From a virus: a stretch of DNA of 43,679 nucleotides. The first letter of the stretch is position 1. Each line of letters opens with the position of its first letter. The translations under genes and the position numbers were made by a program. Of this stretch, positions 3,014 to 32,903 are shown in pieces. The stretch lies in IMG/VR virus record IMGVR_UViG_3300038563_000002, positions 1 to 43,679 of that record; one strand, written 5' to 3'. Under the pieces are notes generated by a model, which saw only the letters and a list, made by a program, of their open reading frames with translations, was not told the DNA's origin and searched no databases.

Positions 3014-3500
3014 GTGCAAATTCTCCATGGTGAAGTTGTGCAGCTTGTTTATAGGCTTCGGCGGCTTCTTCTATAGAAGAATAGTTACCGACGATTATAT
3101 TTTTGCCGTTCTTCCGCACCTGTGCCCTCCAGGGCATGGTGCGCCCGGTTACATATATAACTCCCTTAACCCCGGTTTTGCTGTTGCTGTACACCTTGCG
3201 GTTGGCCATGTTCTGGCTACCTGTGGCTTTTCTTAGGTTGGACCAAACGTTATCAGCCCTGTCTAGATTTTTATGATCTATACCTCCGATAGGCCAGGCG
3301 CCGGTCATAATAAACCAAGCTACCCGGTGTGCCGATGCGGTTTGCTGGCACACCGTTATGTACCAATATCCGTTCTTACCTAGCCACCCTGCGCGATCGC
3401 CCTTGCGTACGCGGTACACATCTTGGAGCCAGGCAAATTGCCCGCTATGAGGGTCGTAAGATATAAACGATGCCAGTTCGTCCAAGCTTAGCGTTATCAC
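3006..3500 (-). CDS. HNH homing-type endonuclease with AP2 DNA-binding domain
   Basis: The 164-aa protein has an HNH_3 core (about residues 55-100) with AHRVAWFIMTG, the IDHKN motif (D75, H76) and N84/N88 in a W-S-N-L-R context. An AP2/ERF-type DNA-binding domain follows (about 108-160: GVKGVIY...WRAQV...NYSSIEEAAEAY). Such proteins are mobile endonucleases that cut DNA and copy themselves into related genomes. It starts at GTG (3500), overlapping the helicase stop (GTGA), and its own stop overlaps the next gene by 8 nt. It is therefore wedged into the replication operon without breaking a gene. It uses more A/T-ending codons than its neighbours, consistent with transfer. Confidence 0.85.
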   Translation of the reverse strand: MITLSLDELASFISYDPHSGQFAWLQDVYRVRKGDRAGWLGKNGYWYITVCQQTASAHRVAWFIMTGAWPIGGIDHKNLDRADNVWSNLRKATGSQNMANRKVYSNSKTGVKGVIYVTGRTMPWRAQVRKNGKNIIVGNYSSIEEAAEAYKQAAQLHHGEFAHV

Positions 3501-4900
3501 ATCAGGTCCCCGAATAGATCAACGAACTTGCCCGAAAGAGCCTCCTTACCGTGAATAGCTGCGTATATCCTGTTTTCGATCTGCGTACTGCTGAACTCAA
3601 TAACCAACGGCTGGCCCTTCTGCCCGTACCTGAACACGCGGTCATTCAGCTGCGCATAAAGTTCTAGATCGTAATTCGGCCCGTACCAAACTACAGTACT
3701 GGAGCGAGTCAGGGTTACACCGTGTGCAAGCGTCTTCGGGTGGCAGAGTAAAAAGTCGTACTCGCCACGCTGGAATCGCTGGATCTGGTCGGCCCTGTCA
3801 GGCTGCTTCGTGTCCCCGTATATTACCGCAACTCGCCAGCCTTTCAACCTTAGATTTTCTGCTAATGCCAGTAACGCCGGGATATAAGGGACGGACACAA
3901 TAACCGGCGTCTGGTCCACTTCATCGAACACGTCCAGCAAAGCTTGCACACGCGGCCCACTCGGCACATTGACGGTGTTGCCCTTGCTGTCGTAGACCTC
4001 GCCTAGCGCAATCTGTGCCGCCTTGGTAACGAGGGTCATGGCTTCCTTGGCGTTGATATGGCTGCTGCCGTACTTGGCCTTGCCGTCAGCCATCAGCTGC
4101 TGCAGCAAAGCCTTCTGCTCGGCCGTCAGCGCGATGTCCTTGCGAATCCTGATCGGCGTCTTGATGTCGCCCATCACCTCGCGGCCAAACCGAATGGCTG
4201 GCTGCATGAGGCTGTGCACCCTGGCCATGGCATCGTGCTTGGGTACCCATATGTGCGGTGCCGGGTTGGTCATGAGCATGTCGCGGAACTGCACATAAGT
4301 GATCACCTTCCCGGTGCGCTGGCTACGCGGCATCATGCTCGGGTTGACGAGCAGGATCTGTGCGTAGGCGTCCATCAGGTTCTTGGTGATCGGCGTACCC
4401 GTGAAGGCCCAGCGCGCCGGCTGGCATTTATAGATCAGACTGGCGCAAGCCTTCCAGCGGTTGGTGCGTACGTTGCGGTAATAGCCGGCCAGTTCATCGA
4501 TAACCAATAGCCCTGGCTTCCAGTAACACAGGTCGTGCCACACGCTTTGTACGCCGTCCGGGTTGATCAGCACAATACCCTTGAAGCCGACCAGCTCTTT
4601 GCACTGCTTCTTGCGCTTGGCGCTCACGTCCATGCACATGATCGGAATGCCGGGGCTGAACTGTGCCAGGTGGTCACGCCACGTCGAAGTAATAACGGAC
4701 AGCGGCGCTATAACCAAAATGCGTTCTTCAGCCTTCGACTCGAACAGCGCGGCGATGGCCAGCACGGCGGGCAGGGTTTTCCCGCTCCCACAGGCAGACA
4801 GGTTGTAGCAGATCTTGTTCTCGAGCTGGAACCCCAACGTCTGCCACTGGTGCGGGAGCGGCGTGATTTCCTCGCGGAAAGGCGTCACGGCCATGTTCAT
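3497..4900 (-). CDS. SNF2-type DEAD/H-box DNA helicase
   Basis: The 467-aa protein is a superfamily 2 ATP-dependent DNA translocase of the SNF2 type. Visible motifs are a Q-like PHQW near residue 16, Walker A ACGSGKT (K41), motif II IDELAGYY near residue 135, motif III FTGTPITKN, and C-terminal motifs V/VI LNDRVFRYGQKG. It probably remodels or unwinds phage DNA during replication or recombination, with the neighbouring Cas4-like nuclease. I chose the ATG at 4900 because its ATGA overlaps the nuclease stop; the frame is open further upstream but encodes unrelated residues there. The C-terminus ends in KFVDLFGDLM, a short acidic-hydrophobic tip resembling a beta-clamp-binding motif. Confidence 0.9.
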   Translation of the reverse strand: MNMAVTPFREEITPLPHQWQTLGFQLENKICYNLSACGSGKTLPAVLAIAALFESKAEERILVIAPLSVITSTWRDHLAQFSPGIPIMCMDVSAKRKKQCKELVGFKGIVLINPDGVQSVWHDLCYWKPGLLVIDELAGYYRNVRTNRWKACASLIYKCQPARWAFTGTPITKNLMDAYAQILLVNPSMMPRSQRTGKVITYVQFRDMLMTNPAPHIWVPKHDAMARVHSLMQPAIRFGREVMGDIKTPIRIRKDIALTAEQKALLQQLMADGKAKYGSSHINAKEAMTLVTKAAQIALGEVYDSKGNTVNVPSGPRVQALLDVFDEVDQTPVIVSVPYIPALLALAENLRLKGWRVAVIYGDTKQPDRADQIQRFQRGEYDFLLCHPKTLAHGVTLTRSSTVVWYGPNYDLELYAQLNDRVFRYGQKGQPLVIEFSSTQIENRIYAAIHGKEALSGKFVDLFGDLM

Positions 4901-5637
4901 TGGAAAATGTCCTTCGGCTTGATGGCCAGCGCCTTGGCCTTCACGTTGTCGTTCTTCGGGCAGGCGACGTTGCCGCACCATGCGCACTGCCGGCCAGGAT
5001 TGATTGGCGGATTGAACAAGCGGATACCGCCAGGACCTTCACCGTCCAGGTAGGCGTCGGCCGCGTCGAAGCTTTTGTAGAAGTCGATCATCATCGATTC
5101 CGGCTTCTCGATCACGCGCTGAAACGTGCTGTCCGGCTCGTCCAGATAGACGTAGATCGTGGTCATGGTCCGTGTGCGAACTGCTACCGCCGCCGCAGCG
5201 CCGTAGAAGTCGGCGTCGACCATGTGCTCAGGTTTGTAGCGGCCGGTCTTCCAGTCGATCGTCAGACCCTTGCCGCTGTCGTTGACCAGCACATCAAGCC
5301 CTACGCGGCAGCGCAGATCCGGCGCCCGGAAAAAGTCGACCTTGTTGAAATTCTTGTCCAGCCCGAATTTAAATTCAGGCGCGACCAAAACGCCGTTGTC
5401 CTTCATGCCCAGTAGCGCCGTCGACCATTGCACCGCTGCTGGCAGCTTGGCCGCTTCGCCTTCCAGATGGATACCATAGTTGAGCGTGTTCTCGATGCTG
5501 CTGTGCACACCGCTGCCACGTTCCATCTGCGGGTTCGGCGTCTCCACCCACTTCTTGGTTTCATACTTGGCCACATACATGGCCGGACAGACTTTCAGGT
5601 CGCGCAGCCGCGACACGCCCCACACTCTCAGTGCCAT
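4897..5637 (-). CDS. Cas4/RecB-like PD-(D/E)XK exonuclease with predicted Fe-S cluster
   Basis: The 246-aa protein has the order expected of Cas4/AddB-type nucleases. C17 lies in KVCPAMY, H45 in GSGVHSSIE, the acidic residue D115 in RVGLDVLV, and D128-x-K130 in TIDWKTG. Three C-terminal cysteines C218, C221 and C226 (CAWCGNVAC) with C17 would hold a 4Fe-4S cluster. Such enzymes resect DNA ends. The gene lies between the polymerase and the SNF2 helicase, with 2 nt to the former stop and a 4-nt ATGA overlap with the latter, so the three are probably translated together and act in replication or recombination. All catalytic and cluster residues appear intact. Confidence 0.85.
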   Translation of the reverse strand: MALRVWGVSRLRDLKVCPAMYVAKYETKKWVETPNPQMERGSGVHSSIENTLNYGIHLEGEAAKLPAAVQWSTALLGMKDNGVLVAPEFKFGLDKNFNKVDFFRAPDLRCRVGLDVLVNDSGKGLTIDWKTGRYKPEHMVDADFYGAAAAVAVRTRTMTTIYVYLDEPDSTFQRVIEKPESMMIDFYKSFDAADAYLDGEGPGGIRLFNPPINPGRQCAWCGNVACPKNDNVKAKALAIKPKDIFQ

Positions 5638-5639
5638 GA

Positions 5640-7463
5640 TTATTTAGCCTCTTTGTAATTGTCGCCAATCCCGAACTCGCCAAAGATCGGTACGCCTTGG
5701 AACCAGTCCGGTTTTGATTTGTAAATCTGCTTGAGCTGTGCCAGCACATGTGCCACCCACGTCTCAACCACCACGAACACGCCTTCGTCATGCACGGCCA
5801 TGGCCAGTGGATTGGTCAGGGTCCGCTTCGCCAGGCGCTGTTGATGCATGAACACGTCGTAGGCCATGGCCTGGATCAGGTTTTCCAGCAGCGCCCCGCC
5901 ATATAACTTTTTCCAGTAGACGGCAAACTTTTTTACTGCTTTATATACCCAATCGCCCTCTTCGTTAACGTGCAGTTCCGGGTAGTACAGCGAGCGGCCC
6001 GAGGGCAGCACAGCGCGGCCAAACTCGAAACGTACGCCTTTCATTTCCACCGTTGGCGCCATGCCAGCCATGGCCGGGATCGCAATGTCTTGCAGCCACT
6101 TCCAGCGGTCGCGGACCTTGGTCCGGGTACCACGGTAGGCGTTCCTGATCCGTAGCGCCAGCTCGTCACTGCAAGCCACCTTCTTCTGGCGCAGTGCCAG
6201 TTGAATACGCGCAGCACCGGCACCGAACTGACTGGCCAACTCCGAAGTCTTGGCCGCAAAGCGTTCCTCAAGGTCGGCCTTGGTAATATTGCGACCAAAG
6301 ATCGCGCCGCCCAGTTCACTATAAACGTCGAACTCCGGGTCGATCTCCCACTTGTCCAGGAGCGTGCGCTCGTCGCACCACCACGCGTTGACTCGCAGTT
6401 CGATGCCGGCCAGGTCGCCGACGACCAGCTTCTTGCCCTTCGGCGCCTTGATGCACTTGCGCAGGTCGCCCGCCTTCTCCGGGTTCTGCATGTTGTACTC
6501 ATCGCCGCCGTGCCGCCCCGTGTGTGCCCCGGCCACCTTGAGCGGGATCGGCAGCGACGTAGGCAGCGTCATCCACCTGGCCGAACGGGTCATGGTCTGC
6601 GCCGACTTCTCGCCGATGCGCAGCGCGTGCAGCGCCCGCACGATCGGGTTTTCGTGGTCGGCCAGCTCCATGAAGTCCAGATCGTTTGCGGCGAAAGCAT
6701 AGATCAAGTCGCCCTTGGCGTTCTTCTTCAGCGGCGGCGGTACACCCTGTGCCCGCAGCAACTCAGCGAATTTCTCGCCAGAACGCAGCTGCGCCCGCGT
6801 CAGGTTCAAATCGATCACTGCCTGCTCCTTGGCAGCCACTTCCTTTGCATTGATGGCAGTTGCCAACTCGGTGTCCATCTCCAGTTGCGGGTAGACGCCC
6901 ATGCCCAGCGTCAGGTCGATGTCCTCGAGCATGGTATGCCACGGCACATCCTCGCGCAGCAGCGCTTTGAACAGCTCACGCATGACCACGCCGTCTTGGA
7001 TGGCGTACTTGGCCATGATCGGCTCTTTCGCGCCCAGGTTGACCACGCCCTTGAAGTTCTCGAGGATGCCCTCAAACTTCCACCACTCGGGATTGTTCGG
7101 GAAATAGTACTGTGCCAGCTTCGCCAGGCTCATGCGCTGGCCAGGATTCTTGCGCGACAAGGCCACTTGCGCCATGGACATGGTGTCCATCAGGAACTTG
7201 CGCTCGGGCATATAGAACAGGCTGGTTATGCCGTGGTCGAATAAGCCGTTGTGGCAGCACATGGCGTCGATATGCGGTGCTACGTCCTTGAAGAACGCGG
7301 GCAAGTCGGTACCCGTCACCCAAAAGAAGTCGCCATCGTCGATCGCAAAGGCACAGCCATGACTCTTGAACCGGGGATCGTGTAGATACTCGGTTCGGAT
7401 CATCTTACTTAAGCTGTACTGGTCGTCGTAGTAGGTTTCGTAGTCGAGCCAAAGTGTTCGCAT
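5640..7463 (-). CDS. Family A DNA polymerase with 3'-5' exonuclease domain
   Basis: The 607-aa protein is the replicative DNA polymerase. The 3'-5' proofreading domain is at the N-terminus: exo I D7/E9 in LWLDYETYY, and an exo II-like CHNGLFDHG. No 5'-3' exonuclease domain is present. The polymerase part has motif A VVGDLAGIELRV (catalytic Asp near residue 350) and motif C AVHDEGVF (HDE near 559). Motif A reads LAGIE where Pol I has YSQIE, a variant I associate with phage polymerases. I chose ATG 7463 because the exonuclease motif starts there; upstream residues look random. It is slightly shorter than T7 gp5 (704 aa). It sits between the SF3 helicase (17 bp gap) and the Cas4-like nuclease. 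Confidence 0.93.
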   Translation of the reverse strand: MRTLWLDYETYYDDQYSLSKMIRTEYLHDPRFKSHGCAFAIDDGDFFWVTGTDLPAFFKDVAPHIDAMCCHNGLFDHGITSLFYMPERKFLMDTMSMAQVALSRKNPGQRMSLAKLAQYYFPNNPEWWKFEGILENFKGVVNLGAKEPIMAKYAIQDGVVMRELFKALLREDVPWHTMLEDIDLTLGMGVYPQLEMDTELATAINAKEVAAKEQAVIDLNLTRAQLRSGEKFAELLRAQGVPPPLKKNAKGDLIYAFAANDLDFMELADHENPIVRALHALRIGEKSAQTMTRSARWMTLPTSLPIPLKVAGAHTGRHGGDEYNMQNPEKAGDLRKCIKAPKGKKLVVGDLAGIELRVNAWWCDERTLLDKWEIDPEFDVYSELGGAIFGRNITKADLEERFAAKTSELASQFGAGAARIQLALRQKKVACSDELALRIRNAYRGTRTKVRDRWKWLQDIAIPAMAGMAPTVEMKGVRFEFGRAVLPSGRSLYYPELHVNEEGDWVYKAVKKFAVYWKKLYGGALLENLIQAMAYDVFMHQQRLAKRTLTNPLAMAVHDEGVFVVVETWVAHVLAQLKQIYKSKPDWFQGVPIFGEFGIGDNYKEAK

Positions 7464-7480
7464 GGTGAAAAGTTCTCTAG

Positions 7481-8833
7481 TTATTTGGTCAGGCCCATCG
7501 CTACTGCTACCTCTTGCGGTGGCATGTTGTCCCACTGTTCCCTGTTGCGCCAGCACCAAACCCGCGCCGTCTTCCACACCCCACCTTCTGCTGTGAAGTT
7601 GATCATTCTCAGTTGCGAGTGGCCTAGCCGCTCGAGTGCAGCCGGCAGTGTGCGTGCGTTAAGTCGGGTACCTTTCAGCACAGCGCTGTAGGCAGTATCC
7701 AACTGTGGGATCATGTCCATGATGCGCCCTATATCCTTGTCGAATGGCGGCGCGTGCTCTTGAATAAGGTCTTCGATCAGGCACACCAGGTCGCCGCGCG
7801 CTGCTGTTTGCATAGCCCGCGCTGCTGCCGTTTGTGGTACTGGCGCGTGCGGGTCCCAGTCCTTTGGAAACTTCCAGGTGGCCAGGATCTGTGCCAGCGC
7901 CCCGGCGCCAGGCCCGTCGATCCACTCGACCAGCTCCTTGTAGTAGGCATCATCGCGGCGAGGCTCGAGGCAGCGCAGCACCGCGATACGACCGTCGTTC
8001 TCCATCAGCGGTAGCGCATCGTCGTGGTTGGTGGTTACGACGAAGTGCGCTACGTTGCGAATCTCTTTGGACGCCCGGTTCTTGCCCTCGAACTGGATGT
8101 CTTCCTCGGAAATCTGGCTCTTGAAGTTCTCATAGCCATCTACTTTCTCAGACCGGGCCATTTCGTTGATGAAGACGATTCGTTTGTGCTCAATCGCATC
8201 ATCGAAGTTCTTCTGCAGTTGCTTGCCAGTACACCCGCCTACCAACGGCTTGCCAAACACTTTGGTTAGCAGCCGTTGCATCAGGTTCTTGCCCACGCGG
8301 CCATACTTGGAATAGAACAGTACCGCGGTCGGCATCTTGATTTCCGGCGTCTGGTACAGCTGTGCCAGCCAGCACAGAAAGAAGGTTACGCCCACTACAT
8401 CGCCACCGGATAGATACATCAAGTGCTGCGCCAAAATTGCGATGCTGTCAGCCGTGGCAGTCGTATCACGCTCGGCCATGGTTTGCTTCAGCACATGCCA
8501 GCGGTTGAATACTTCCGGGTTGTCGTCATTCTCTGGAAGGCTGGTTGGCTCCATCACCAGCCGGCGAACCACCCGGCGCTGCGGATCGTTCCAGCTCCAC
8601 CATATTTCACCAGCCGCCATGCGTTTCTCGGTCGGTGGTTCGGCCTCGGTCTTGCCGGGAACCTCAATCAAGATATCGCCGTAGTGCTTGGCGCAGTACT
8701 GGGTAAACCCATCCTTGCCCAGCTCGTCACCCGATCCGATATGGTAGGCGACTGTCCTACTGGCCGTAACCAACATCACAAAATCCTCCGAAATGTACTT
8801 CAGGATTTCGCGAGATTCGTGGTCGATTTTCAT
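7481..8833 (-). CDS. SF3-type replicative helicase (D5/DUF5906-like)
   Basis: The 450-aa protein has a superfamily 3 AAA+ helicase core. The Walker A-like loop is KYGRVGKN (K near residue 182), the Walker B region is RIVFINEM, and a sensor 1 or motif C-like FVVTTNHDDALP with a trailing arginine (GRIAVLRC) follows. This matches the DUF5906/D5 family of phage replicative helicases. It would unwind the fork for the family A polymerase. Primase activity is not in this chain but in the adjacent prim-pol gene upstream, so the usual primase-helicase fusion is split. Start: ATG 8833 with GGTGA upstream, or GTG 8845 (four more residues); I slightly favour the ATG. Confidence 0.85.
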   Translation of the reverse strand: MKIDHESREILKYISEDFVMLVTASRTVAYHIGSGDELGKDGFTQYCAKHYGDILIEVPGKTEAEPPTEKRMAAGEIWWSWNDPQRRVVRRLVMEPTSLPENDDNPEVFNRWHVLKQTMAERDTTATADSIAILAQHLMYLSGGDVVGVTFFLCWLAQLYQTPEIKMPTAVLFYSKYGRVGKNLMQRLLTKVFGKPLVGGCTGKQLQKNFDDAIEHKRIVFINEMARSEKVDGYENFKSQISEEDIQFEGKNRASKEIRNVAHFVVTTNHDDALPLMENDGRIAVLRCLEPRRDDAYYKELVEWIDGPGAGALAQILATWKFPKDWDPHAPVPQTAAARAMQTAARGDLVCLIEDLIQEHAPPFDKDIGRIMDMIPQLDTAYSAVLKGTRLNARTLPAALERLGHSQLRMINFTAEGGVWKTARVWCWRNREQWDNMPPQEVAVAMGLTK

Positions 8834-8854
8834 ATTGTCACCCACGTCAAGCCA

Positions 8855-9706
8855 TTAGCTAGGAGTAATTTCGAGGCGCGCTCTGGCAATCTCATCACAC
8901 AACCACCGCCATCCGCGTTCTCGAGGCTTCTCCCCCAGGGTCCCGTACCATACAACCTTGGCAATGGACTCGTCACTGAGTTTTTCGGGTATGGTTTTTG
9001 ATTTTCGCAAACGCAATCGAATAAGGGTATTGAGCAGCAGCCAGATAGAACGGGACCGGTCGCCGGGGGTCACTGTGCCAGCCAAAATGTTATAAAGCAG
9101 CGGGTTGACGGCCTTCAAAGCTACCTGCAAGGCGAACAGATCCTCAGACGTGTTCGGGAATGCGGTCAGGGCTTGCTCTGGCGTGACGCCAGCGCTGTCG
9201 ATGCTGCGTTGGCGTACTTCTGCCAGGTATTGCGTCGCCCACGCTGGAGCGTCCTGTAGCGGCCCCTGGCACAACCACTTGTACTGGAAGCCGTTCGGGT
9301 GCCGGGAAGGGGGCGCTACCGTCAGGCCAGCCGACAAGACATCGATCTTGCCACTGTACCCACACTGGATACGCCGGCCCACCGGGCAAGACTCTGGCTT
9401 ACGGTAATAAAAATGCGCGCCCTTATTCGTTAATACTATATTGGCACAACGCTCGGGCGTCAGGCTCATCGCTTCCTTCACGGCCTCCGGGCTGTCGCAG
9501 TCGATCACCAGTAGTCCGGACGGTTCGAGCAGCAGCCCGCAGTCCAGGTTGGGGGTGATCACCCACGGTTGCATGAATGCTTCCGTGAACGGGGCGCGCA
9601 GATCCACCAGCTGCTTCCACCGTACGGTAGGGCGCGGCGGTTTGGTGGCGGCTACCAACGGGATCGGCAGCCAGCCTTGTGCCAGGTAGGAACGGGGATC
9701 GCTCAC
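8855..9706 (-). CDS. Bifunctional primase/polymerase (prim-pol) domain protein
   Basis: The 283-aa protein matches the prim-pol family (Pfam Prim-Pol, AEP superfamily). Catalytic acidic residues D69 and D71 are in LLVIDCDSPEA, H98 in GAHFYYRKP, a third acidic residue D122 in GKIDVLSAG, and the following APPSRHPNG loop is typical. It should synthesise primers at the fork. The chain ends with a helical region (residues about 200-283) but carries no helicase. The start is GTG at 9706, directly abutting the stop of the 52-aa gene (TAAGTG), with GGGAG upstream. It is separated by about 20 bp from the SF3 helicase gene and surely works with it. Confidence 0.88.
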   Translation of the reverse strand: MSDPRSYLAQGWLPIPLVAATKPPRPTVRWKQLVDLRAPFTEAFMQPWVITPNLDCGLLLEPSGLLVIDCDSPEAVKEAMSLTPERCANIVLTNKGAHFYYRKPESCPVGRRIQCGYSGKIDVLSAGLTVAPPSRHPNGFQYKWLCQGPLQDAPAWATQYLAEVRQRSIDSAGVTPEQALTAFPNTSEDLFALQVALKAVNPLLYNILAGTVTPGDRSRSIWLLLNTLIRLRLRKSKTIPEKLSDESIAKVVWYGTLGEKPRERGWRWLCDEIARARLEITPS

Positions 9707-9865: not shown

Positions 9866-10530
9866 ACATATTCCACTTCGATTTCGTGGGACTTCATGTA
9901 TTCCTCCATGCGGGCAACCTGTCCATAGCTTTTGTTCATCGTCCAACTCCCTACGGCCAGAATCTTGCAGCCTCGCATGCCGTACATTTGATCAACCATA
10001 TGGATGTAGCGCCACGTCTTCGGCAGCTGGGTTCTTTGGGCGTAGGCGCGTGCTTGTGCGTGCGACGGCGCCATCAGGTAGATCCATCCGTTTGCGTTAG
10101 GAGTAAACGCCGCTTCGTTGCTTCGGATCTCGTCGTGAATCACCACCATAGGCCCGTCACCCTTACCTGTCAGGCCGACTTCATACATCACGGTGCCGTG
10201 CGTCATCATACGTTCTTCAAGCGCGCTAAAGTCGGTGAGTGCCATAAGCTTCATCGCTTGCTTGTACCACTCCGACTGCAGCCAGGACTTATCCAGGTTT
10301 CGGCCCTGCACGTACGCCTCGCGCTTGCGCAGCTTCTCGATGGCGTCGTGTACCAGCGTGCCCCGCTCCAATGCGGTCATGGGGCGCACGCCATGCACAG
10401 ATTTGTCTATACCGGCAACCAGATCCCAAGCCCGTACCCATTCCTCCACCATGTTGCAAGTATCAGACACTGGCGTTTGTGGGTTCATCAGCGCCCGGAT
10501 TTCATCAGTCCAGTCAGCAAAGCTTTTCAT
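9862..10530 (-). CDS. Hypothetical early protein (222 aa)
   Basis: I do not recognise this 222-aa protein. The N-terminal 70 residues look helical (SFADWTDEIRALM..., TALERGTLVHDAIEKLRKRE). The central part has beta-like stretches (GPMVVIHDEIRSNEAAF), and a C-terminal segment IYLMAPSHAQARAYAQRT resembles a small ligand- or nucleic-acid-binding element, without a named motif. The start ATG 10530 overlaps the stop of the upstream HTH/zinc gene (ATGA), and its own stop overlaps the next start the same way. It is thus part of a coupled series leading into the replication genes. Confidence 0.7.
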   Translation of the reverse strand: MKSFADWTDEIRALMNPQTPVSDTCNMVEEWVRAWDLVAGIDKSVHGVRPMTALERGTLVHDAIEKLRKREAYVQGRNLDKSWLQSEWYKQAMKLMALTDFSALEERMMTHGTVMYEVGLTGKGDGPMVVIHDEIRSNEAAFTPNANGWIYLMAPSHAQARAYAQRTQLPKTWRYIHMVDQMYGMRGCKILAVGSWTMNKSYGQVARMEEYMKSHEIEVEYV

Positions 10531-11297
10531 TGTTCAGCCCTCTTCTTCAAGCCCACGGCAGTGATCGCGCCGCACTGCGGACAGTACTTGGCCACCGATG
10601 TTACCTTGGCATGGCACAGTGGATTGGTGCAGTCTATACAGCCCTTGCGCCCCGACGTACCACGCGGGATCTTCAGCCCATACTTGGCGTCCAGCTCCAG
10701 CACTTTGTCCAGCCGGATGCCCAACAGATCGGCTATACGCTTGGTGCCTACCTGGCCAGCCGCTATGTGCTTGCGGATCAGCTTTACACGCGCTGCCTCT
10801 TGGTCGGCGCGGTTGATCTGCCGATAGGGGTCAGCTCGCGGATCCTTCTCGAAGTGGGAATACAGCAGGCGTTGCAACAGGCTGTTACTGCACCCAAGCT
10901 TCTGGCACATACCCTTCTTGGTCTTCACCGTGCCCATCAGGGCGTCGATAGTCGCCACCAGTTGCGTGTCGCTTTGCTTGGTATAGCGCAGGGCGGCGGC
11001 GCCGTTGAGCTGTGCCTTGGTCGGTGCTGCCTTGGTACGCCTGGCAATGCCAGCCTCGCGTAGTTCGTGGTTGGGCGGCGCTGCCTTGCCTACCGGGAAC
11101 GACCACAGCGGGTTGTTGAACGCGACGGCCGTTTCGCCTGGCTCGAACTCCTTGACCACGCCGCCGCGCGCCACAAACTCGTCCACCTGGCGCTGCAGTT
11201 CCTCACTGGCCGTCAGCACACGCGGCCGGGGTTGCAGCTCAGCCCAGCTATCGGGGGCGACATACACGTCGTCCTCCGAGTACAGAACTTCGGTCAT
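10527..11297 (-). CDS. Probable DNA-binding protein with HTH region and C-terminal zinc ribbon
   Basis: The 256-aa protein carries two likely helix-turn-helix stretches in its middle part (about residues 115-200: KKGMCQKLGCSNSLLQRLLY and GTKRIADLLGIRLDKVLELD). A C-terminal four-cysteine zinc ribbon follows (CIDCTNPLC ... KYCPQCGA). The N-terminal 100 residues are loosely structured. This suggests a DNA-binding or transcription-regulating protein made early, ahead of the replication genes; the target is unknown. I chose ATG 11297 because GGAGAG lies upstream and the ATGA overlaps the stop of a tiny membrane peptide. The frame is open further upstream but there encodes the shadow of that peptide gene. 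Confidence 0.7.
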   Translation of the reverse strand: MTEVLYSEDDVYVAPDSWAELQPRPRVLTASEELQRQVDEFVARGGVVKEFEPGETAVAFNNPLWSFPVGKAAPPNHELREAGIARRTKAAPTKAQLNGAAALRYTKQSDTQLVATIDALMGTVKTKKGMCQKLGCSNSLLQRLLYSHFEKDPRADPYRQINRADQEAARVKLIRKHIAAGQVGTKRIADLLGIRLDKVLELDAKYGLKIPRGTSGRKGCIDCTNPLCHAKVTSVAKYCPQCGAITAVGLKKRAEQ

Positions 11298-11386
11298 GAT
11301 AGCGCTCTCCAGATTTCGATAGAGAACAAGGATAGGACGACGGCGCCGCACACTATCCAGATTTGAATGTCGTTCTTGGTGATCAT
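11294..11386 (-). CDS. Tiny single-helix membrane peptide (30 aa)
   Basis: A 30-aa frame begins MITKNDIQIWIVCGAVVLSL and ends IEIWRALS. It has a short polar head, one membrane helix of about 17 residues and a positive C-terminal turn. GGGAG lies about 8 nt before the ATG, and the stop overlaps the start of the HTH/zinc gene (ATGA), so it is probably translated and coupled. The function is unknown. It is one of five such peptides in this early block. Confidence 0.6.
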   Translation of the reverse strand: MITKNDIQIWIVCGAVVLSLFSIEIWRALS

Positions 11387-12314: not shown

Positions 12315-12875
12315 TTATTTCGTCGGTACAGCAGGCGATACTTCGATGATGGTTTGCAGAATGGGCTTCCAGACTACCCACCAGGCAGCGGCTCGATCGT
12401 CCATCTGTGCTATCTCGCCTAAAGAAAACGCCCACCACTCGCTAATCAAATGCAGCTGGCACCCTACCTGCATGTGAGTAGTGGTATAACTCACAGGCCA
12501 GTAATCAGCCTGGATAGACTTGATGTTTTGCATGTTGCCGACTATACCTAAGATCGAGGCTACTCCGGCCAGGTTGGCACGGGTTAGGTTGGCATCGGTT
12601 AGGTTGGCACGGGTTAGGTTGGCATCGGTTAGGTCGGCATCGGTTAGGTTGGCATCGGTTAGGTTGGCACGGGTTAGGTTGGCACGGGTTAGGTTGGCAC
12701 GGGTTAGGTTGGCATAGGTTAGGTTGGCACGGGTTAGGTTGGCATAGGTTAGGTTGGCATCGGTTAGGTCGGCACCGCGCAGGTCGGCACGGACGCCCTG
12801 CTCGTGGTCCGACGACAGCCACAATGCATGCTGTGCCAGGACTTCTTTCAGTTCGTCAGCGGTAAAGGTTTTCAT
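12315..12875 (-). CDS. Pentapeptide-repeat protein
   Basis: The 186-aa protein has a short N-terminal helical cap (MKTFTADELKEVLAQHALWL). Fifteen consecutive pentapeptides follow at about residues 27-101, with consensus A(N/D)LT(R/D/Y). This forms a right-handed quadrilateral beta-helix by family rule. A C-terminal domain (about 105-186) follows with a QADYWPVSYTTTHMQVGC stretch and tryptophans, a tail I have seen paired with phage pentapeptide repeats. Known relatives include gyrase-protecting DNA mimics (Qnr/MfpA), but this repeat face mixes Arg and Asp, so DNA mimicry is not assured. The repeats are nearly identical at DNA level. The ribosome-binding site is weak (AGCGAG). Confidence 0.85.
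   Translation of the reverse strand: MKTFTADELKEVLAQHALWLSSDHEQGVRADLRGADLTDANLTYANLTRANLTYANLTRANLTRANLTRANLTDANLTDADLTDANLTRANLTDANLTRANLAGVASILGIVGNMQNIKSIQADYWPVSYTTTHMQVGCQLHLISEWWAFSLGEIAQMDDRAAAWWVVWKPILQTIIEVSPAVPTK
12571..12795. repeat. Tandem 15-bp coding repeat, 15 units
   Basis: Fifteen 15-bp units encode the pentapeptides. The thirteen at 12571-12765 match aggttggca-nnn-ggtt almost perfectly. Differences fall in one codon, read on the coding strand as CGT, GAT or TAT (Arg, Asp, Tyr), plus one Asn-to-Asp change. Third-position identity implies recent expansion or gene conversion. Confidence 0.95.
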
Positions 12876-14669: not shown

Positions 14670-14851
14670 TACCATACCCTCTTTAGGTCTTGCGCGGCCT
14701 TTAGCACATCGGCGGGCAGACGCAGCACGATGATAGAATTAAACCCTGAGCTGTGAATCTGGACTAGGTAGTCCGCCCAGCCAAGTTCGTTGAGGCGCTT
14801 CACCGCGCCGTGCGTGTTGTCGCCGAAGTTCATTGAGTACAGGACGTTCAC
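14669..14851 (-). CDS. Small hypothetical protein (60 aa)
   Basis: The 60-aa product starts at GTG 14851 in a GTGA overlap with the upstream stop (MNVLYSMNFGDNTHGAVKRL) and has a regular alpha/beta pattern (DYLVQIHSSGFNSIIVLRLP). The tight overlaps on both sides support translation. It may be one small domain; no family is recognised. Confidence 0.6.
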   Translation of the reverse strand: MNVLYSMNFGDNTHGAVKRLNELGWADYLVQIHSSGFNSIIVLRLPADVLKAAQDLKRVW

Positions 14852-15030
14852 AATTCACCATCCTGCAGCCTACGGGCTGCGCGTTCGTTTTTGCGGATAC
14901 CGTCAATGTAGCATTCGACACGCCAGCCCAACGGCCCGCGCTTGACCAGGACGCGAACGCCCGTCGCCTTGTCTTCTGCCATGAGCTGGCCGCTGTGCCT
15001 GGCCAGGCGAATCAAGTCATTTAGAGTCAT
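14848..15030 (-). CDS. Small basic hypothetical protein (60 aa)
   Basis: The 60-aa product begins MTLNDLIRLARHSGQLMAED and has a short beta core (GVRVLVKRGPLGWRVECYID) and a basic tail (RKNERAARRLQ). The net positive charge hints at nucleic-acid contact without proof. GAGGAT precedes the ATG. It starts 2 bp after the clamp-like gene, so the two are probably co-translated. Confidence 0.6.
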   Translation of the reverse strand: MTLNDLIRLARHSGQLMAEDKATGVRVLVKRGPLGWRVECYIDGIRKNERAARRLQDGEL

Positions 15031-15032
15031 GG

Positions 15033-15668
15033 TTAGATCCTCGTCGGCATGACGATAACAGCGGCCTCGACTACGCCGACGGGCAGCGCGCCAGGCTTTA
15101 GCAACATGGATTCGCTAGCACCGTGGAGCGTCATGGTTACGCCTGCATACTTGCTGGAATCGAAAGCCCCGCATGCCTTGCTGGCCGCTGCCATGTAGTC
15201 GGCATTGAACCCTATCGTTTCGGTGGCTGTCGGCCTAGCGCCCGACTTGCACACGCGGCGCCAGTCGGGGTAATGGCCTTTGATGGTACGGCACACAATG
15301 GCGCGCCCGTCGCCTGCAATGACGGTCAGGACCGGCTCAATAGCGGGTACGGCGTTATCGTCGCCCTCGCTGAATCGAATGTCACAGAAGCCGGTAGACT
15401 TGGCTGGCATGGCCGAAAACAACAGCTTGATATCCGTCGTTTCGACGATGAATTGAATGCCTTTGTGCTGGCCTTCGGCGTACGGCGCGGACTTGATAAT
15501 GTCGTCAGCTATTTCAACGTATGCCATGCGGTGGCCGTCTGTGCCTACCATGATAAGGCCCGTAGGGACGAACTCGAACAACACGCCGTTCAGGTAATAG
15601 CGGATATCCTTCTGTGCAGCCGCGTGCATGGCGAACTTCAAAGCGGCAACGAACGTTGACTGTTTCAT
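15033..15668 (-). CDS. Two-domain beta sliding clamp-like protein
   Basis: The 211-aa protein matches domains II and III of the bacterial DNA polymerase III beta subunit (DnaN, about 366 aa) but lacks domain I. Residues 22-49 carry the signature IRYYLNGVLFE ... VGTDGHRMA. The middle has HYPDWRRV, matching the FPDYRRV of DnaN. The C-terminus is VIVMPTRI, matching VVMPMRL. These three elements form the hydrophobic pocket where clamp-binding peptides dock, so partner binding should be kept. Rings need six domains: a dimer of three-domain chains, or here three two-domain chains, as in PCNA. Its own ATG has only a weak upstream site. It is near the promoter-proximal end of the early block. Confidence 0.75.
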   Translation of the reverse strand: MKQSTFVAALKFAMHAAAQKDIRYYLNGVLFEFVPTGLIMVGTDGHRMAYVEIADDIIKSAPYAEGQHKGIQFIVETTDIKLLFSAMPAKSTGFCDIRFSEGDDNAVPAIEPVLTVIAGDGRAIVCRTIKGHYPDWRRVCKSGARPTATETIGFNADYMAAASKACGAFDSSKYAGVTMTLHGASESMLLKPGALPVGVVEAAVIVMPTRI

Positions 15669-15712: not shown

Positions 15713-15916
15713 CTAGCCCTGGCAGCCGTCACACTTGCCAATCTGGCCGGGCTCTAGCGTGCACTGGCACACGTCGCACAGTTCAGCGTCGTCGCCAATG
15801 GTCCAGCCAGCTGCGCGCACGATGTCGGCAATCTGGTCTAGCGTATCTGGCGTCCAGGGGGTTTGCGCAAGCTGGTCTGCTATCAGGTCCAGCGCAACTG
15901 CCATGCTAATGCTCAT
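15713..15916 (-). CDS. Small zinc-finger protein (67 aa)
   Basis: The 67-aa product has an N-terminal helical part (MSISMAVALDLIADQLAQTP, then DTLDQIADIVRAAGW) and a C-terminal zinc finger with four cysteines (ELCDVCQC ... GKCDGCQG). GTGAGG lies 9 nt before the ATG. This is a typical early, promoter-proximal regulator or adaptor size, but no function is known. Confidence 0.6.
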   Translation of the reverse strand: MSISMAVALDLIADQLAQTPWTPDTLDQIADIVRAAGWTIGDDAELCDVCQCTLEPGQIGKCDGCQG

Positions 15917-24816: not shown

Positions 24817-25215
24817 ATGGCAATCCAATTCAGTGTTGCCGTGCGCAACGCACGCCTGAACGCGATCGAAGCCACCGTAGGCACGGCGCCGAAGCTAAAA
24901 CTGTTCACGCTGTCGCCACCGACCAACTGTGCTGCCTCCGAAACCGGCACCCTACTCTGCACGCTGACCCTACCGTCTGACTGGGTAGGCGCTGGCTCGA
25001 GCGGCGCCACGGTAATCGCCGGCACCTGGACGGGCACAGCGATCGCGGCCGGCACCTGTGCTCACTACCGCCTGTGCGACACGGCTGGTACTACCTGCCA
25101 CGAACAGGGCACCGTGGGTATCGGTACCGGCGACCTGCAGTTGGATAACACCAGCATCGCGATCAACCAGGTAATCAGCATTCCTACATGGACGACTACT
25201 GACGGTAACGCCTAA
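24817..25215 (+). CDS. Small conserved virion-type protein (132 aa)
   Basis: The 132-aa product begins MAIQFSVAVRNARLNAIEAT and is beta-rich with G/T/A repeats and cysteines. The patterns LTLPSDWVGAG and HYRLCDTAGTTCHEQG occur in a family of small structural proteins of tailed phages, whose exact role (decoration or fibre base) is unsettled. It is placed between portal and the 663-aa repeat protein, coupled to it by TAATG. The two are probably partners in the same surface structure. Confidence 0.65.
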   Translation: MAIQFSVAVRNARLNAIEATVGTAPKLKLFTLSPPTNCAASETGTLLCTLTLPSDWVGAGSSGATVIAGTWTGTAIAAGTCAHYRLCDTAGTTCHEQGTVGIGTGDLQLDNTSIAINQVISIPTWTTTDGNA

Positions 25216-27206
25216 TGGCAATGCCGGTCACAGTCACGGGCTTGCTCGCCAACGCGGCGAGCATGGAGACTACGTGCGGCCCGTTTGTGACGGCTGCCGG
25301 CAACGTCTACGTCTTTGGCCGGGGTACCACTGGCAACCTGCTGCGCGCCTTCAAGAACACCAACCCGACGACTAACAGCTTCACCAACGTCGGTACCGAT
25401 GTCACCACTACCTCTACCGAGGACATTCTCGGCTGTGTCGGCGTACAGCAAGGCAACCTGATCTACGTCATTGTGTCGGACGGCAACGCCGTCACCACCG
25501 TCAGCATTAGACTCAACATTTTCGACACCAGCAGCGACACATGGACGACCACCAACGAAGCCGTCACCACCGGCTTCACGGTGCTGGCCCTGTCGACGCC
25601 AAACGCCATGGGCGTAGCGATCCGCTCAACCGGCGACTTGATTGTGATCTACAACGGCCCGGTGAAGAACATCAGCGCGGCCAACCGAGAAACCGTCTAC
25701 TACGGCCGCAGGGTGGCCGGGGTATGGACCAAGGATATCGACATTGGCAACGGCGGGGCCAACAACTGGTATGCCGGGGGCGTAGTCCTCGGGTCCAGTG
25801 ATCGGATGCACTTTTTCTTCAACAACGACACCGCCGCCGACGACTTCCAACGCTGCCTGACCAGCGCCAACGTCTTGGAAACCTTCCCGGCTGCCTTTGA
25901 CGCCACGGTGGGTACCAACCAGGCCGGGATTAAGCTGATCGGCTGCAGCTACCTCAGCGCAGGCGCGACCAAGGTACGCTACCCCTACCTGGACAACGCC
26001 AACCTGACGCTGGGTTCGGTAAAGTTCGACTCGGCCGATACGCCATCGATCACCCTGGACGCCGACATTACCGGCGCTACAGACGTGGTGGGCGGTGCCA
26101 ACAGAAGCTGTTTCCAGGCTGACGGTACCACTCTCTACCACTTGTTCATCGACAGCCTGACCGACGTTAAATACCAGACCAACGCCGACGATGCGGGCTG
26201 GAGCGCGATCACCAACCTGATCACCGGCACCGCTTCTGGCGTGCGCGGCGCCATGTATTCGCGGGCTGGCCGTGTTGTGCTGGCTTATATCTATAACAAC
26301 AGCACGACGCCTGTTTATAACGAACTGGATATAAGGGCAGATGCCTTTATCGGTACCCGCAACGTAACCCTCGCTGCCGCTACCCAAGCCGGTACCGGGC
26401 TGGTCGCCGTCGCGGGTGCCAAAAACGCTAACCTGGCCGCTGCCACGTTGGTCAGTACCGGCAAGGTCGCCTTAGCCGGGGCCAAGAATGCCACGCTGGC
26501 GGCTGCTACGCTGTCCGCTTCGGGCAAGGTGTTCCTCAGTGGCACTAGGTCCGCTACGCTCGCTGCTGCCACCCTGGCGGGCACTGGCACCGTAGCTGGC
26601 CCGTTCACCTTCGGTACGTTCGTCAACACCCTGGCCGCTGCTACGCTCGCTGCTGCCGGTACCGTCCGTGTTACCGGGAGTAAGGTCGCCACACTGGCAG
26701 CCGCCACAATGGCCGGCGACGCCGACACCATCATCACCGGCAGCTTCAACAACACCCTGGCAGCTGCCACCCTCGTCGCCACTGGCGTAGTGACTAACCT
26801 GCCGGTGATCGTCGGTACTCGCAACATCACCTTGGCCGCGGCTACACTGTCCGCCGCGGGAACCGTAGGCAATACGCCCCCGGTACCGGCGCCGATCCTG
26901 CCGAGTGATAGCAGTGGCGGCAGCGGCAACCGATCCGGCGACAAGAAACGTCGCATATTTCTTGTACCCGAGGATGATGTAGAGCCAAGGACGCTAGAAA
27001 AGATGCTAGGCATCCGCGAGGAAGAACCGGAACCTGAAGAATTACCCCCTGTGCCAGTGGTGGAACTCACCTTGGCCGAGGCGGTGGCGGCGAGCCCGTC
27101 AGCCCTGCAAGACCCCTCGACATTGCCGTTATCATCGCCGGTCGCTGTCGAGATAGAAGAATATAGCGATGAAGATCTGATCCAGTTATTACTACTGGTC
27201 ATATAG
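25215..27206 (+). CDS. Large beta-rich virion protein with LAAAT repeats
   Basis: The 663-aa protein has an N-terminal region (about residues 1-375) of repeated beta strands with alternating SxDxW/T-type patterns, resembling a kelch or sialidase-like propeller. Eight copies of an (x)TLAAATL-x-(A/S)-x-G-x-V unit follow at about residues 380-552. The C-terminal part is polar, proline- and acidic-rich and ends in DEDLIQLLLLVI. This looks like a surface fibre or capsid appendage. The location between portal and scaffold is odd for a tail protein. It could instead be an internal or head-decoration protein. I do not recognise a named family. Confidence 0.6.
   Translation: MAMPVTVTGLLANAASMETTCGPFVTAAGNVYVFGRGTTGNLLRAFKNTNPTTNSFTNVGTDVTTTSTEDILGCVGVQQGNLIYVIVSDGNAVTTVSIRLNIFDTSSDTWTTTNEAVTTGFTVLALSTPNAMGVAIRSTGDLIVIYNGPVKNISAANRETVYYGRRVAGVWTKDIDIGNGGANNWYAGGVVLGSSDRMHFFFNNDTAADDFQRCLTSANVLETFPAAFDATVGTNQAGIKLIGCSYLSAGATKVRYPYLDNANLTLGSVKFDSADTPSITLDADITGATDVVGGANRSCFQADGTTLYHLFIDSLTDVKYQTNADDAGWSAITNLITGTASGVRGAMYSRAGRVVLAYIYNNSTTPVYNELDIRADAFIGTRNVTLAAATQAGTGLVAVAGAKNANLAAATLVSTGKVALAGAKNATLAAATLSASGKVFLSGTRSATLAAATLAGTGTVAGPFTFGTFVNTLAAATLAAAGTVRVTGSKVATLAAATMAGDADTIITGSFNNTLAAATLVATGVVTNLPVIVGTRNITLAAATLSAAGTVGNTPPVPAPILPSDSSGGSGNRSGDKKRRIFLVPEDDVEPRTLEKMLGIREEEPEPEELPPVPVVELTLAEAVAASPSALQDPSTLPLSSPVAVEIEEYSDEDLIQLLLLVI
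26356..26870. repeat. Eight degenerate protein repeats (LAAAT units)
   Basis: Eight units of about 20-25 codons share the core TLAAAT(L/M/Q) followed by A/S-x-G-(T/K/L)-V. DNA identity is moderate, so the array is old compared with the pentapeptide array at 12571. Confidence 0.8.
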
Positions 27207-31020: not shown

Positions 31021-32370
31021 ATGGACAGTGTTATGCAGCAACTGCTTGAAAAAGCGGTCGATCTTCACCGTGTCGGCAATCTGCAGGAAGCCGGCAATAT
31101 CTACAACCAGCTGCTGAATCGGGAGCCGTTCAACCCCGGCCTGTTGTACCTGATCGGCGATATCGCTGTGCGCCAGGGCTGCCATGGCCTTGGCATCGCC
31201 CTACTGAGCACGTCCGTCTCCATCAAGCCGACCGTGGAAGCCTACACCGCCTTGGGCGTAGCCTACCGCCACGAACAGTTCCTTGACCAAGCCGAAGCGG
31301 CCTGGCGCAATGGCCTGAAGCTGGAAGAGACGGCAGAGCTGTACAACAACATCGCTTCGATCTACTCCGACCACGGCGAGCCTGTGAAGTCGCTGGCACT
31401 GGTCAACCATTCACTCAGGCTGGCACCCGGCAACCCCAATGCCATGTGGAACAAGGCCCTGGCCCTGCTGACAGCGCAGCGCTGGCCTGAAGCCTGGTCG
31501 CTGCACGAATCGCGCTTCCATCCTGAAGTACAGTCGGTCAGTACTCGCCGTGTGCTGGACTGCCCGCTGTGGGACGGCAAGAAGACCGGCCACCTGGCCA
31601 TTCATGGTGAGCAGGGCCTGGGCGACGAAATCATGTTCATGAGCGTGATCGCCGACGCTATCCCGCTGTGCGACAAGATGTCGATTGAGGTAGCACCGCG
31701 CCTGATGGATCTGGTACAGCGCACGTTCCCCGACGCCGAGATCTACGGCACCGAGGAAGCCATGCGCAAGTGGGGCGCGCCCTTCGACGCCGTGTGCGCC
31801 TTGGGCAGCCTGCCGAGCTTCTTTCGCAACAAGACCGAAGAGTTCCCCGGCGTACCCTTCCTTGTACCAGACCCCAACCGTGTCGAGTTCTGGCGCCGTC
31901 AGTACGCCATGCATGGCCCGCGGCCGTTCATTGGTGTGTCCTGGCAAGGCGGTACCAAAGGTACCCGCATCACTCAGCGCACCGTGGCTGCCAACAGCCT
32001 TGGGTTCTGCAAGCGCGGTACCGTCGTCTCGCTTCAATACGGTGAGTACGCCGAGCTGCAGGCCGTGAAGGAAGGCTACCTGTTCTACCCCGAGTCGAAG
32101 GGTGCAGACATCGACGAACTGGCGGCCATGACCGCCGCCTGTGACCTGATCGTTACCGTGGCGCAGACGCTGGTACACGTCGCTGGCGGCTTGGGGGTAC
32201 CGACGCTGGTACTGACCCCGCTGCACTCGAGCTGGCGCTACGGGATGGGCACCACCATGCCTTGGTACGGCTCTGTGAAACTACTGCGTCAGACCAAGGC
32301 AGACGATTGGGGCTACCCGCTCGCTGAAGCCAAACGACAAGTCGACCAACTGTGCCGGGAGTTGAAATAA
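31021..32370 (+). CDS. TPR-containing glycosyltransferase
   Basis: The 449-aa protein has N-terminal tetratricopeptide repeats (residues about 5-170: AGNIYNQLLNREPFNPGLLY, AYTALGVAYRHEQFLDQAEA and more). A C-terminal glycosyltransferase of GT-B type follows (about 185-449: HGEQGLGDEIMFMSVIADAI, FIGVSWQGGTKGT, VTVAQTLVHVAGGLGVPTLV). This is the layout of TPR-linked GT9/GT41-like enzymes that add sugars to proteins or lipids. The TPR part would bind the target protein. It leads a three-gene sugar/methyl module, coupled by TAATG. Such a gene is unusual in the morphogenesis block of a short-tailed phage. Confidence 0.85.
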   Translation: MDSVMQQLLEKAVDLHRVGNLQEAGNIYNQLLNREPFNPGLLYLIGDIAVRQGCHGLGIALLSTSVSIKPTVEAYTALGVAYRHEQFLDQAEAAWRNGLKLEETAELYNNIASIYSDHGEPVKSLALVNHSLRLAPGNPNAMWNKALALLTAQRWPEAWSLHESRFHPEVQSVSTRRVLDCPLWDGKKTGHLAIHGEQGLGDEIMFMSVIADAIPLCDKMSIEVAPRLMDLVQRTFPDAEIYGTEEAMRKWGAPFDAVCALGSLPSFFRNKTEEFPGVPFLVPDPNRVEFWRRQYAMHGPRPFIGVSWQGGTKGTRITQRTVAANSLGFCKRGTVVSLQYGEYAELQAVKEGYLFYPESKGADIDELAAMTAACDLIVTVAQTLVHVAGGLGVPTLVLTPLHSSWRYGMGTTMPWYGSVKLLRQTKADDWGYPLAEAKRQVDQLCRELK

Positions 32371-32903
32371 TGCTGATCAGTGAACAGTACCGCGCCGAAA
32401 ACGCCCGCCAGCACTTCCAGTCGCAAGGCTATGGCGAGAAGGGTTACAAGCACATGGAGGACGTTCTGCACGTCCTGCGCCGGGACAAGTGCGAGTCTGC
32501 CCTCGACTATGGCTGTGGCAAGGCTACCCTGTCCAAGCATGCCCGCCGTATCTGCGAAGTGCCGATCGCCAACTACGATCCGGCTATCCCCGAGTACGCC
32601 GCTGACCCGGAACCGGCCGACCTGCTGATTTGCACCGATGTGCTCGAGCATATCGAACCACTGAACCTCGAGGACGTGTTGCTGCACATGCGCTCCAAGT
32701 GCAACAAGGCGTTCTACTTCCAGATCGCTACCCGGCCAGCGCAGCGGGTATTGAGCGATGGGCGCAATGCCCACCTGCTGGTCAAGCCGCCTTACTTCTG
32801 GCTTGACACCCTGCGCCGCCACTTCGACATTACCGAGTTCCGGGCACTGCCGGGCCACGCGGTGGTGGTTTGCGGCGTACCACAAGGGGCAGCGTACGAA
32901 TGA
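32370..32903 (+). CDS. SAM-dependent methyltransferase (class I)
   Basis: The 177-aa protein has a class I methyltransferase core. Motif I is SALDYGCGKATLSKH (residues about 45-60) and motif IV-like is ADLLICTDVLEHIEP. The ALPGHAVVVCGVP end closes the beta sheet. The target is unknown; the VLEHIEP type is common in small-molecule, sugar and lipid methyltransferases, less so in DNA methyltransferases, and no (D/N)PPY motif is seen. It starts inside the stop of the glycosyltransferase (TAATG) and overlaps the GT8-like gene (ATGA), so it is likely to modify the product of one of them. Confidence 0.82.
   Translation: MLISEQYRAENARQHFQSQGYGEKGYKHMEDVLHVLRRDKCESALDYGCGKATLSKHARRICEVPIANYDPAIPEYAADPEPADLLICTDVLEHIEPLNLEDVLLHMRSKCNKAFYFQIATRPAQRVLSDGRNAHLLVKPPYFWLDTLRRHFDITEFRALPGHAVVVCGVPQGAAYE

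What the first reader, a model, noticed from the sequence alone, without database searches (positions are those of the whole stretch)
15033..15668. A two-domain bacterial-type sliding clamp in a phage with a family A polymerase
The sequence shows the domain II signature (YYLNG...TDGHRMA) and the domain III end (VMPTRI) of DnaN but only 211 aa, so domain I is missing. DnaN rings are dimers of three domains; a two-domain clamp would need three copies for a six-domain ring, as PCNA does. It may load on DNA for the phage polymerase, mix with the host clamp, or compete for the host clamp-binding peptides. Family A phage polymerases usually use other processivity factors (T7 uses thioredoxin). Whether closely related phages already have this annotated I cannot tell.
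Basis: partly seen in the sequence, partly recalled or inferred. Interest (0 to 1): 0.75.

Follow-up and report, generated by a model that had tools for sequence, protein, structure and literature searches.

The report
Ring-less phage mini-clamp keeping the pocket
This phage gene makes a cut-down bacterial DNA sliding clamp that lacks the parts that close a ring around DNA but keeps, almost unchanged, the pocket that grips replication and repair proteins; hundreds of phages carry it, it is often mislabelled, and it may act as a decoy or handle for host replication proteins rather than as a clamp.

Summary
The gene is real: 211 aa, minus strand, 15668 to 15033. It is a DnaN (beta-clamp) homologue (Pfam DNA_pol3_beta_2, E = 2.8e-9; AlphaFold model, pLDDT 87, best matches E. 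coli beta clamps). It is not a two-domain clamp. It has domain II plus only the second half of domain III (1.5 domains). Domain I is missing, and so are E. coli residues ~254-311, which carry the domain-III side of the dimer interface (I272, L273, E298-E304). In contrast, 14 of the 18 published peptide-pocket residues are identical and two more conservative, and pocket columns are far more conserved than the others (p = 5e-8).

The same design occurs in all 35 aligned relatives; homologues are in 242 phage records and at least 403 viral-contig stretches, under strong purifying selection (dN/dS 0.07-0.10). Databases already call it "DNA pol III beta (fragment)" or, wrongly, "RusA-like resolvase". 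None of 38 source records matches the clamp-loader family tested, most show no Pol A, and this phage's replication proteins lack the usual clamp-binding motif.

My reading is a ring-incompetent pocket module that captures host clamp partners. Domain make-up and conservation are shown; function is inferred (about 50%). It is a new variant of a known kind.

The parts
15033..15668 (-). mini-clamp gene, 211 aa, ATG start at 15668, stop at 15035-15033
15252..15668 (-). DnaN domain II (protein residues 1-139)
   Evidence: Pfam PF02767 residues 3-135; hhalign to E. coli 126-247
15219..15251 (-). deletion junction: about 11 residues stand where DnaN has the whole first half of domain III (E. coli ~254-311, with I272, L273, E298-E304)
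   Evidence: hhalign global alignment
15036..15221 (-). second half of domain III (residues ~150-211)
   Evidence: hhalign E=1.1e-13 against domain IIIb, 4.4e-3 against IIIa
15585..15602 (-). pocket segment RYYLNG (R152 and L155 of E. coli DnaN)
   Evidence: invariant or nearly so in 35 of 35 relatives
15525..15542 (-). pocket segment TDGHRM (T172, G174, H175, R176, L177)
15252..15272 (-). pocket segment YPDWRRV (P242, R246, V247)
15195..15212 (-). pocket segment GFNADY (N320, Y323)
15036..15059 (-). C-terminal pocket strand VIVMPTRI (V360-L366)
15713..15916 (-). upstream gene of the same leftward run, 67 aa, shares a TGAGGCT leader with the mini-clamp
14848..15030 (-). downstream gene, 60 aa, starts 2 bases after the mini-clamp stop
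5640..7577 (-). family A DNA polymerase of the same phage, about 8 kb downstream; no canonical clamp-binding motif
   Evidence: PF00476 E=9.3e-18; motif scan

Best explanation
The gene encodes a free-standing 'pocket module' of the bacterial sliding clamp: domain II plus the adjoining second half of domain III, which together form the groove that binds clamp-binding-motif peptides (QLxLF type). It has lost domain I and the part of domain III that make the ring interface, so it most likely cannot close the DnaN ring or be loaded on DNA as a clamp. The most likely mechanism is that, made early in infection, it competes with the host clamp for host proteins that carry the motif (clamp-loader delta subunit, Pol III alpha, Pol II/IV/V, MutL, Hda, ligase). 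By doing so it sequesters or redirects them away from the host chromosome. Shown: homology, the missing parts, pocket conservation, purifying selection, and no match to the clamp-loader family tested; the clamp-like fold is a confident prediction. Inferred: peptide binding, a monomeric (non-ring) state, early expression, and the benefit to the phage.
For: (1) Domain make-up: hhalign of the 35-member family to full-length DnaN, E = 1.3e-44, with one deletion at E. coli ~254-311; the C-terminal half matches IIIb, not IIIa. Every interface residue listed in PMC11139829 (K74, I78, R96, R103, R105, F106, I272, L273, E298, E300, E301, E303, E304) falls in a gap in the window protein. (2) Pocket: of the 18 subsite residues given in PMC11139829, 14 are identical in the window protein, L177M and V360I are conservative, M364T and V344S differ; pocket columns have mean entropy 0.88 bits against 2.48 elsewhere, p = 5e-8. 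(3) AlphaFold models of two distant members: pLDDT 86.9/pTM 0.87 and 95.0/0.90; the top PDB matches are beta clamps, TM by query length 0.55-0.73. (4) A monomeric E. coli clamp with a working cleft seems dominant-negative (it could not be cloned; PMC3022782), cannot tether Pol III, and is bound ~50 times more tightly by delta than the dimer (PMC11139829). (5) No delta-prime-type clamp loader in 38 records and no Pol III alpha in 29; Pol A in only 12 of 38. (6) The window's own polymerase, primase and helicase have no consensus clamp-binding motif. (7) dN/dS 0.07-0.10. (8) In several unrelated phages it sits like a moron, against the transcription of the head genes.
Against: No binding, oligomer or expression data. 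Pocket geometry was not measured on the models (no coordinates were available), so pocket integrity rests on residue conservation and fold similarity. Some conserved sites outside the pocket (Y24, Y25, G28, D135) and a net positive first helix (mean +2.3) leave room for DNA contact. Lambdoid members lie between cII and the O-like replication gene, in phages that presumably rely on host Pol III, where poisoning that enzyme would hurt the phage. A hydrophobic pair near the end of the last helix (A168, F169 in the window; often L-F or L-Y in relatives) could still support some self-association.
Confidence: 0.5

Rival explanations
1. Recruiting handle: the pocket module binds host clamp partners (repair polymerase, ligase, MutL, delta) and brings them to phage DNA or to a phage protein, a helpful adaptor rather than a poison. 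It may touch DNA through its basic first helix without encircling it.
For: Same pocket evidence; basic first helix kept and RYY invariant; a monomeric E. coli clamp still binds DNA (PMC11139829); lambdoid members sit in the replication region; one member lies right behind a Pol A gene (L093) and others beside helicases.
Against: No conserved neighbour or partner domain across loci: the commonest Pfam family among 120 neighbours occurs 3 times. Some members sit alone among structural genes.
Confidence: 0.22
2. Processivity clamp of a new architecture for the phage polymerase: four 1.5-domain subunits would give the 12 half-domains of a normal ring, or the subunits would form an open tether.
For: Arithmetic (4 x 3 half-domains = 12); this record and about a third of relatives have a family A polymerase; some papers assume a clamp role for such proteins, e.g. 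phage fBC-Eco01 Gp04 (PMC9825357).
Against: Known interface elements deleted; no clamp-loader family match; no clamp-binding motif in the phage polymerase; two thirds of records show no Pol A match, including whole isolate genomes such as Skarpretter, PVP-XSN and yong1.
Confidence: 0.15
3. It joins the host DnaN ring as a poison subunit or caps an open DnaN dimer.
For: DnaN relative; it could in principle pair with a host domain edge.
Against: Both faces used in the DnaN dimer (domain I and the first half of domain III) are missing.
Confidence: 0.06
4. RusA-like Holliday junction resolvase, as the phrog_3007-derived annotation says.
For: Only the label of phrog_3007, which matches 35 of 35 members, and RefSeq product names.
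Against: No RusA Pfam match at E<=10 or among the families scanned over the family; PDB profile and fold searches return beta clamps.
Confidence: 0.01
5. Decaying fragment of a host dnaN picked up by phages.
For: It is a fragment of DnaN by descent.
Against: dN/dS 0.07-0.10; the same deletion in all 35 aligned members, which form one side of a branch (98/87); broad distribution.
Confidence: 0.03

Closest known systems
Bacterial beta sliding clamp DnaN (TIGR00663; Pfam PF00712/PF02767/PF02768)
   Same: Domain II, the second half of domain III and most peptide-pocket residues; clamp-like predicted fold
   Different: No domain I, no first half of domain III, no ring interface; about 170-234 aa instead of ~366; no clamp-loader gene of the family tested in the same records
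Phage short 'DNA polymerase III beta subunit' proteins (phrog_3007; Dhillonvirus EP23/SO-1, Segzyvirus, Bcep43 gp15, Skarpretter)
   Same: Same family and same 1.5-domain design
   Different: The window protein is only 22-42% identical to the aligned relatives and forms a subclade with L018 and L019
Full-length phage and plasmid DnaN (Paracoccus phage Pyei1, KL1 gp28, Providencia/Citrobacter/Pseudomonas plasmids)
   Same: DnaN homologues on mobile elements
   Different: 364-425 aa, long enough for three domains and potentially ring-forming
T4 gp45 / PCNA two-domain trimeric clamps
   Same: Clamp superfamily fold
   Different: They have two complete domains per subunit; this protein has 1.5
Phage Twort Gp168 clamp inhibitor (PMC11139829)
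   Same: A phage protein that interferes with clamp function, as proposed here
   Different: Gp168 binds the host clamp channel; here the phage protein is itself a piece of clamp

Membership tests
DnaN sliding clamp (ring-forming) | Three clamp domains per subunit | tested here: not met
   Domain I absent; first half of domain III absent
DnaN sliding clamp (ring-forming) | Dimer interface residues (K74, I78, R96, R103, R105, F106 / I272, L273, E298-E304) | tested here: not met
   All fall in gaps in the window protein and in the 35-member alignment, apart from one residue of one relative at E298
DnaN sliding clamp (ring-forming) | Clamp-binding-motif pocket | tested here: met
   14 of 18 residues identical, two conservative; strong column conservation. 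Conservation only, not binding
DnaN sliding clamp (ring-forming) | Encircles DNA, loaded by a clamp loader | not testable with these tools
   No match to the delta-prime clamp-loader family in 38 records; needs biochemistry
DnaN homologous superfamily (clamp fold) | Sequence and fold similarity to DnaN | tested here: met
Phage mini-clamp family (phrog_3007) | Domain II directly joined to domain IIIb, about 170-234 aa | tested here: met
   phrog_3007 E=2.6e-28 over residues 8-211; A2 alignment; tree
PCNA/gp45-type two-domain clamp | Two complete clamp domains per subunit | tested here: not met
   Second domain is only a half-domain
RusA resolvase | RusA domain | tested here: not met
   No RusA match in Pfam or PDB searches

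The most novel reading that the evidence does not exclude
A phage-wide family of ring-incompetent sliding-clamp fragments that work as soluble decoys or handles for the host's clamp-binding proteins: a clamp turned into a peptide trap, used to take over host replication or repair.
Probability: 0.45. Interest if true: 0.8.

Novelty: new variant of a known kind. Interest (0 to 1): 0.57.

Why it matters
If the reading is right, hundreds of phages, including ones grown on E. coli K-12, carry a natural competitor for the clamp-binding motif, the hub through which bacteria coordinate replication and repair and a target of antibiotic research. It would be a ready-made tool and a phage takeover mechanism opposite to known clamp inhibitors: it would mimic the clamp instead of blocking it. 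Even if not, the family is mislabelled as a Holliday junction resolvase in many RefSeq phage records, or assumed to be a working processivity clamp, and both labels need checking.

Tried and rejected
Plus-strand reading of the coordinates: not a protein. Nucleotide search of phages with the surrounding 24 kb: no match. Single-sequence scan of IMG/VR: nothing; only the alignment query worked. Missed N-terminal domain: rejected by an upstream stop and absence of PF00712. C-terminal part from the first half of domain III: a local HMMER alignment ran into it, but separate profile comparisons favour the second half by about ten orders of magnitude. Clamp-binding motif in phage replication proteins: not above chance (2 pentamer hits against 3.8 expected, none in polymerase, primase or helicase). 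Link to a constant neighbour such as a DNA-modification enzyme (Nmad5 beside it in Dhillonvirus, Dam in Skarpretter and PVP-XSN): real in those genomes, but no family is shared across loci. Plasmid mini-clamps: the four plasmid matches opened are full-length DnaN. Link to the anti-Tmn gene of Dhillonvirus: a different protein. Literature searches found no paper dealing with the missing interface; the library holds open-licence papers only.

Full report
WHAT IS THERE. The ORF is on the minus strand, 15668 to 15033, 211 aa, ATG start, with an in-frame stop 7 codons upstream and a GAGG leader that resembles that of the gene before it. It lies in a leftward run of genes (16618 down to about 200) that includes, 5-10 kb further on, a PriPol-type primase (8855-9706), a DUF5906 primase-helicase (7481-8845), a family A DNA polymerase (5640-7577), a PD-(D/E)XK exonuclease (4897-5637) and an SNF2-type helicase (3497-4987). 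The opposite strand from about 17.4 kb carries endolysin, terminase, portal, coat and tail genes. The mini-clamp is thus among the first genes from the divergent region near 16.6-17.4 kb. Early expression is an inference from that position; no promoter was shown (the scan found no more sites than shuffles would give).

WHAT THE PROTEIN IS. Pfam gives DnaN domain II only (E = 2.8e-9); NCBIfam gives dnaN residues 130-249, below the whole-protein cut-off. A profile of the family finds E. coli DnaN in the PDB at E ~1e-33, and profile-profile comparison gives E = 1.3e-44 with an alignment from E. coli 126 to the C-terminus, interrupted by a gap at about 254-311. Compared separately with each half-domain of DnaN, the last 71 residues match the second half of domain III at E = 1.1e-13, the first half at 4.4e-3 and the other halves not at all. 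The protein is therefore domain II plus the second half of domain III, one and a half of the three clamp domains. AlphaFold gives pLDDT 86.9, pTM 0.87 for the window protein and 95.0, 0.90 for a 170-aa relative of the Shigella phage EP23 type. The best PDB matches of both are beta clamps, mostly of E. coli, with TM 0.55-0.73 by query length.

WHAT IS LOST AND WHAT IS KEPT. The review PMC11139829 lists the dimer-interface residues and the peptide-pocket residues. In the alignment of 35 mini-clamps with E. coli DnaN all interface residues fall in gaps, apart from a single letter of one relative at E298. The pocket is retained: of 18 listed positions, 14 are identical in the window protein (R152, L155, T172, G174, H175, R176, P242, R246, V247, N320, Y323, M362, P363, R365), two are conservative (L177M, V360I) and two differ (M364T, and V344S, a position that the review names as not conserved among clamps). 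Pocket columns are much more conserved than the rest (mean entropy 0.88 against 2.48 bits, p = 5e-8). This is the opposite of what a decaying fragment would show, and dN/dS of 0.07-0.10 in two clusters of relatives says the same.

HOW WIDESPREAD. The 35 representatives form one side of a branch against four full-length clamps (98/87), which fits one origin, though the comparison set is small. Domain I is absent from all 38 mini-clamp records while both full-length controls are found. The four plasmid matches that were opened are full-length DnaN genes, so in this sample the short form was seen only in phages.

CONTEXT. No neighbour is shared across loci. In Dhillonvirus the gene stands with Nmad5 on the strand opposite the head genes, in Segzyvirus and Roufvirus behind a ParB-like gene, in Bcep43 between head genes, in lambdoid phages between cII and the O-like gene, and once right behind a family A polymerase (L093). 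It was called a possible moron in Sodalis phage SO-1. Of 38 source records (some are short fragments) 12 show a Pol A match and none a match to the delta-prime-type clamp-loader family; of 29 none has Pol III alpha. The window's polymerase, primase and helicases have no consensus clamp-binding motif.

HOW IT PROBABLY WORKS. A clamp ring has 12 half-domains. Three copies of this protein give nine and four give twelve, but the surfaces that join DnaN subunits are missing, so a tetramer would need a new interface. What selection has kept is the pocket. Published work on E. coli shows that a monomeric clamp cannot support processive synthesis but still binds DNA (PMC11139829), is bound about 50 times more tightly by the delta subunit than the dimer, and, with a working cleft, seems dominant-negative in cells because it could not be cloned (PMC3022782). 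A free pocket module should therefore be a natural competitor for host clamp partners. I put about 50% on a decoy that sequesters or redirects them, 22% on a recruiting handle, 15% on an unusual clamp. The lambdoid members are the best argument for the handle, since those phages presumably need host Pol III. All function statements are inference.

NOVELTY. The family is already annotated in databases as a beta-subunit or clamp homologue (Bcep43: 'DNA Pol III b subunit fragment'), and some genome papers assume it is a processivity clamp (PMC9825357). Many RefSeq records instead call it 'RusA-like Holliday junction resolvase', the label of phrog_3007, for which no sequence or fold support was found. 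I found no paper in the open-licence library that deals with the missing interface or the retained pocket. It is a new variant of a known kind, with a testable mechanism.

Noticed in passing
phage records NC_016566, NC_048112, NC_054640 and others; phrog_3007: RefSeq product name 'RusA-like Holliday junction resolvase' is attached to beta-clamp fragments, although the original GenBank record of the same phage (JN984867) says DNA polymerase III beta subunit. Looks like a propagated PHROG mislabel.
   Followed up: yes
L002 11983-13341 (Shigella phage EP23): Mini-clamp and Nmad5 form a two-gene cassette on the strand opposite the head genes; PMC11846954 reports that Nmad5 mutations let Dhillonvirus phages escape the Tmn defence.
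   Followed up: partly
window 10527-11351 -: 274-aa protein with a SutA-type RNA-polymerase-binding domain (PF20661, E=4e-7) and a weak zinc ribbon; possibly a phage transcription regulator.
   Followed up: no
window 12315-12875 -: Pentapeptide-repeat-like protein (repeated ANLTD/ANLTR units) in the leftward run of genes.
   Followed up: no
window 31021-33559 +: Between coat and tail genes: a TPR-like protein, a methyltransferase (phrog_24759) and a likely glycosyltransferase; the last is 55-56% identical to genes in L036 and L087, which also carry a mini-clamp.
   Followed up: no
window 25215-27206 +: 663-aa protein with a degenerate repeated motif (TLAAATL) and no PHROG match, between portal and coat genes.
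   Followed up: no
L011 (MG065686.1, 'Campylobacter phage A18a', marked UNVERIFIED): The 'phage' stretch contains an E. coli-type dnaA-dnaN-recF-gyrB region with dnaN identical to the E. coli sequence used here: host contamination, so its match is not a phage clamp.
   Followed up: yes
L098, L099 (Providencia and Citrobacter plasmids): Large plasmids carry a full-length dnaN (~422 aa) close to Dam methylase and rdgC genes; why a plasmid needs its own clamp is unexplained.
   Followed up: no
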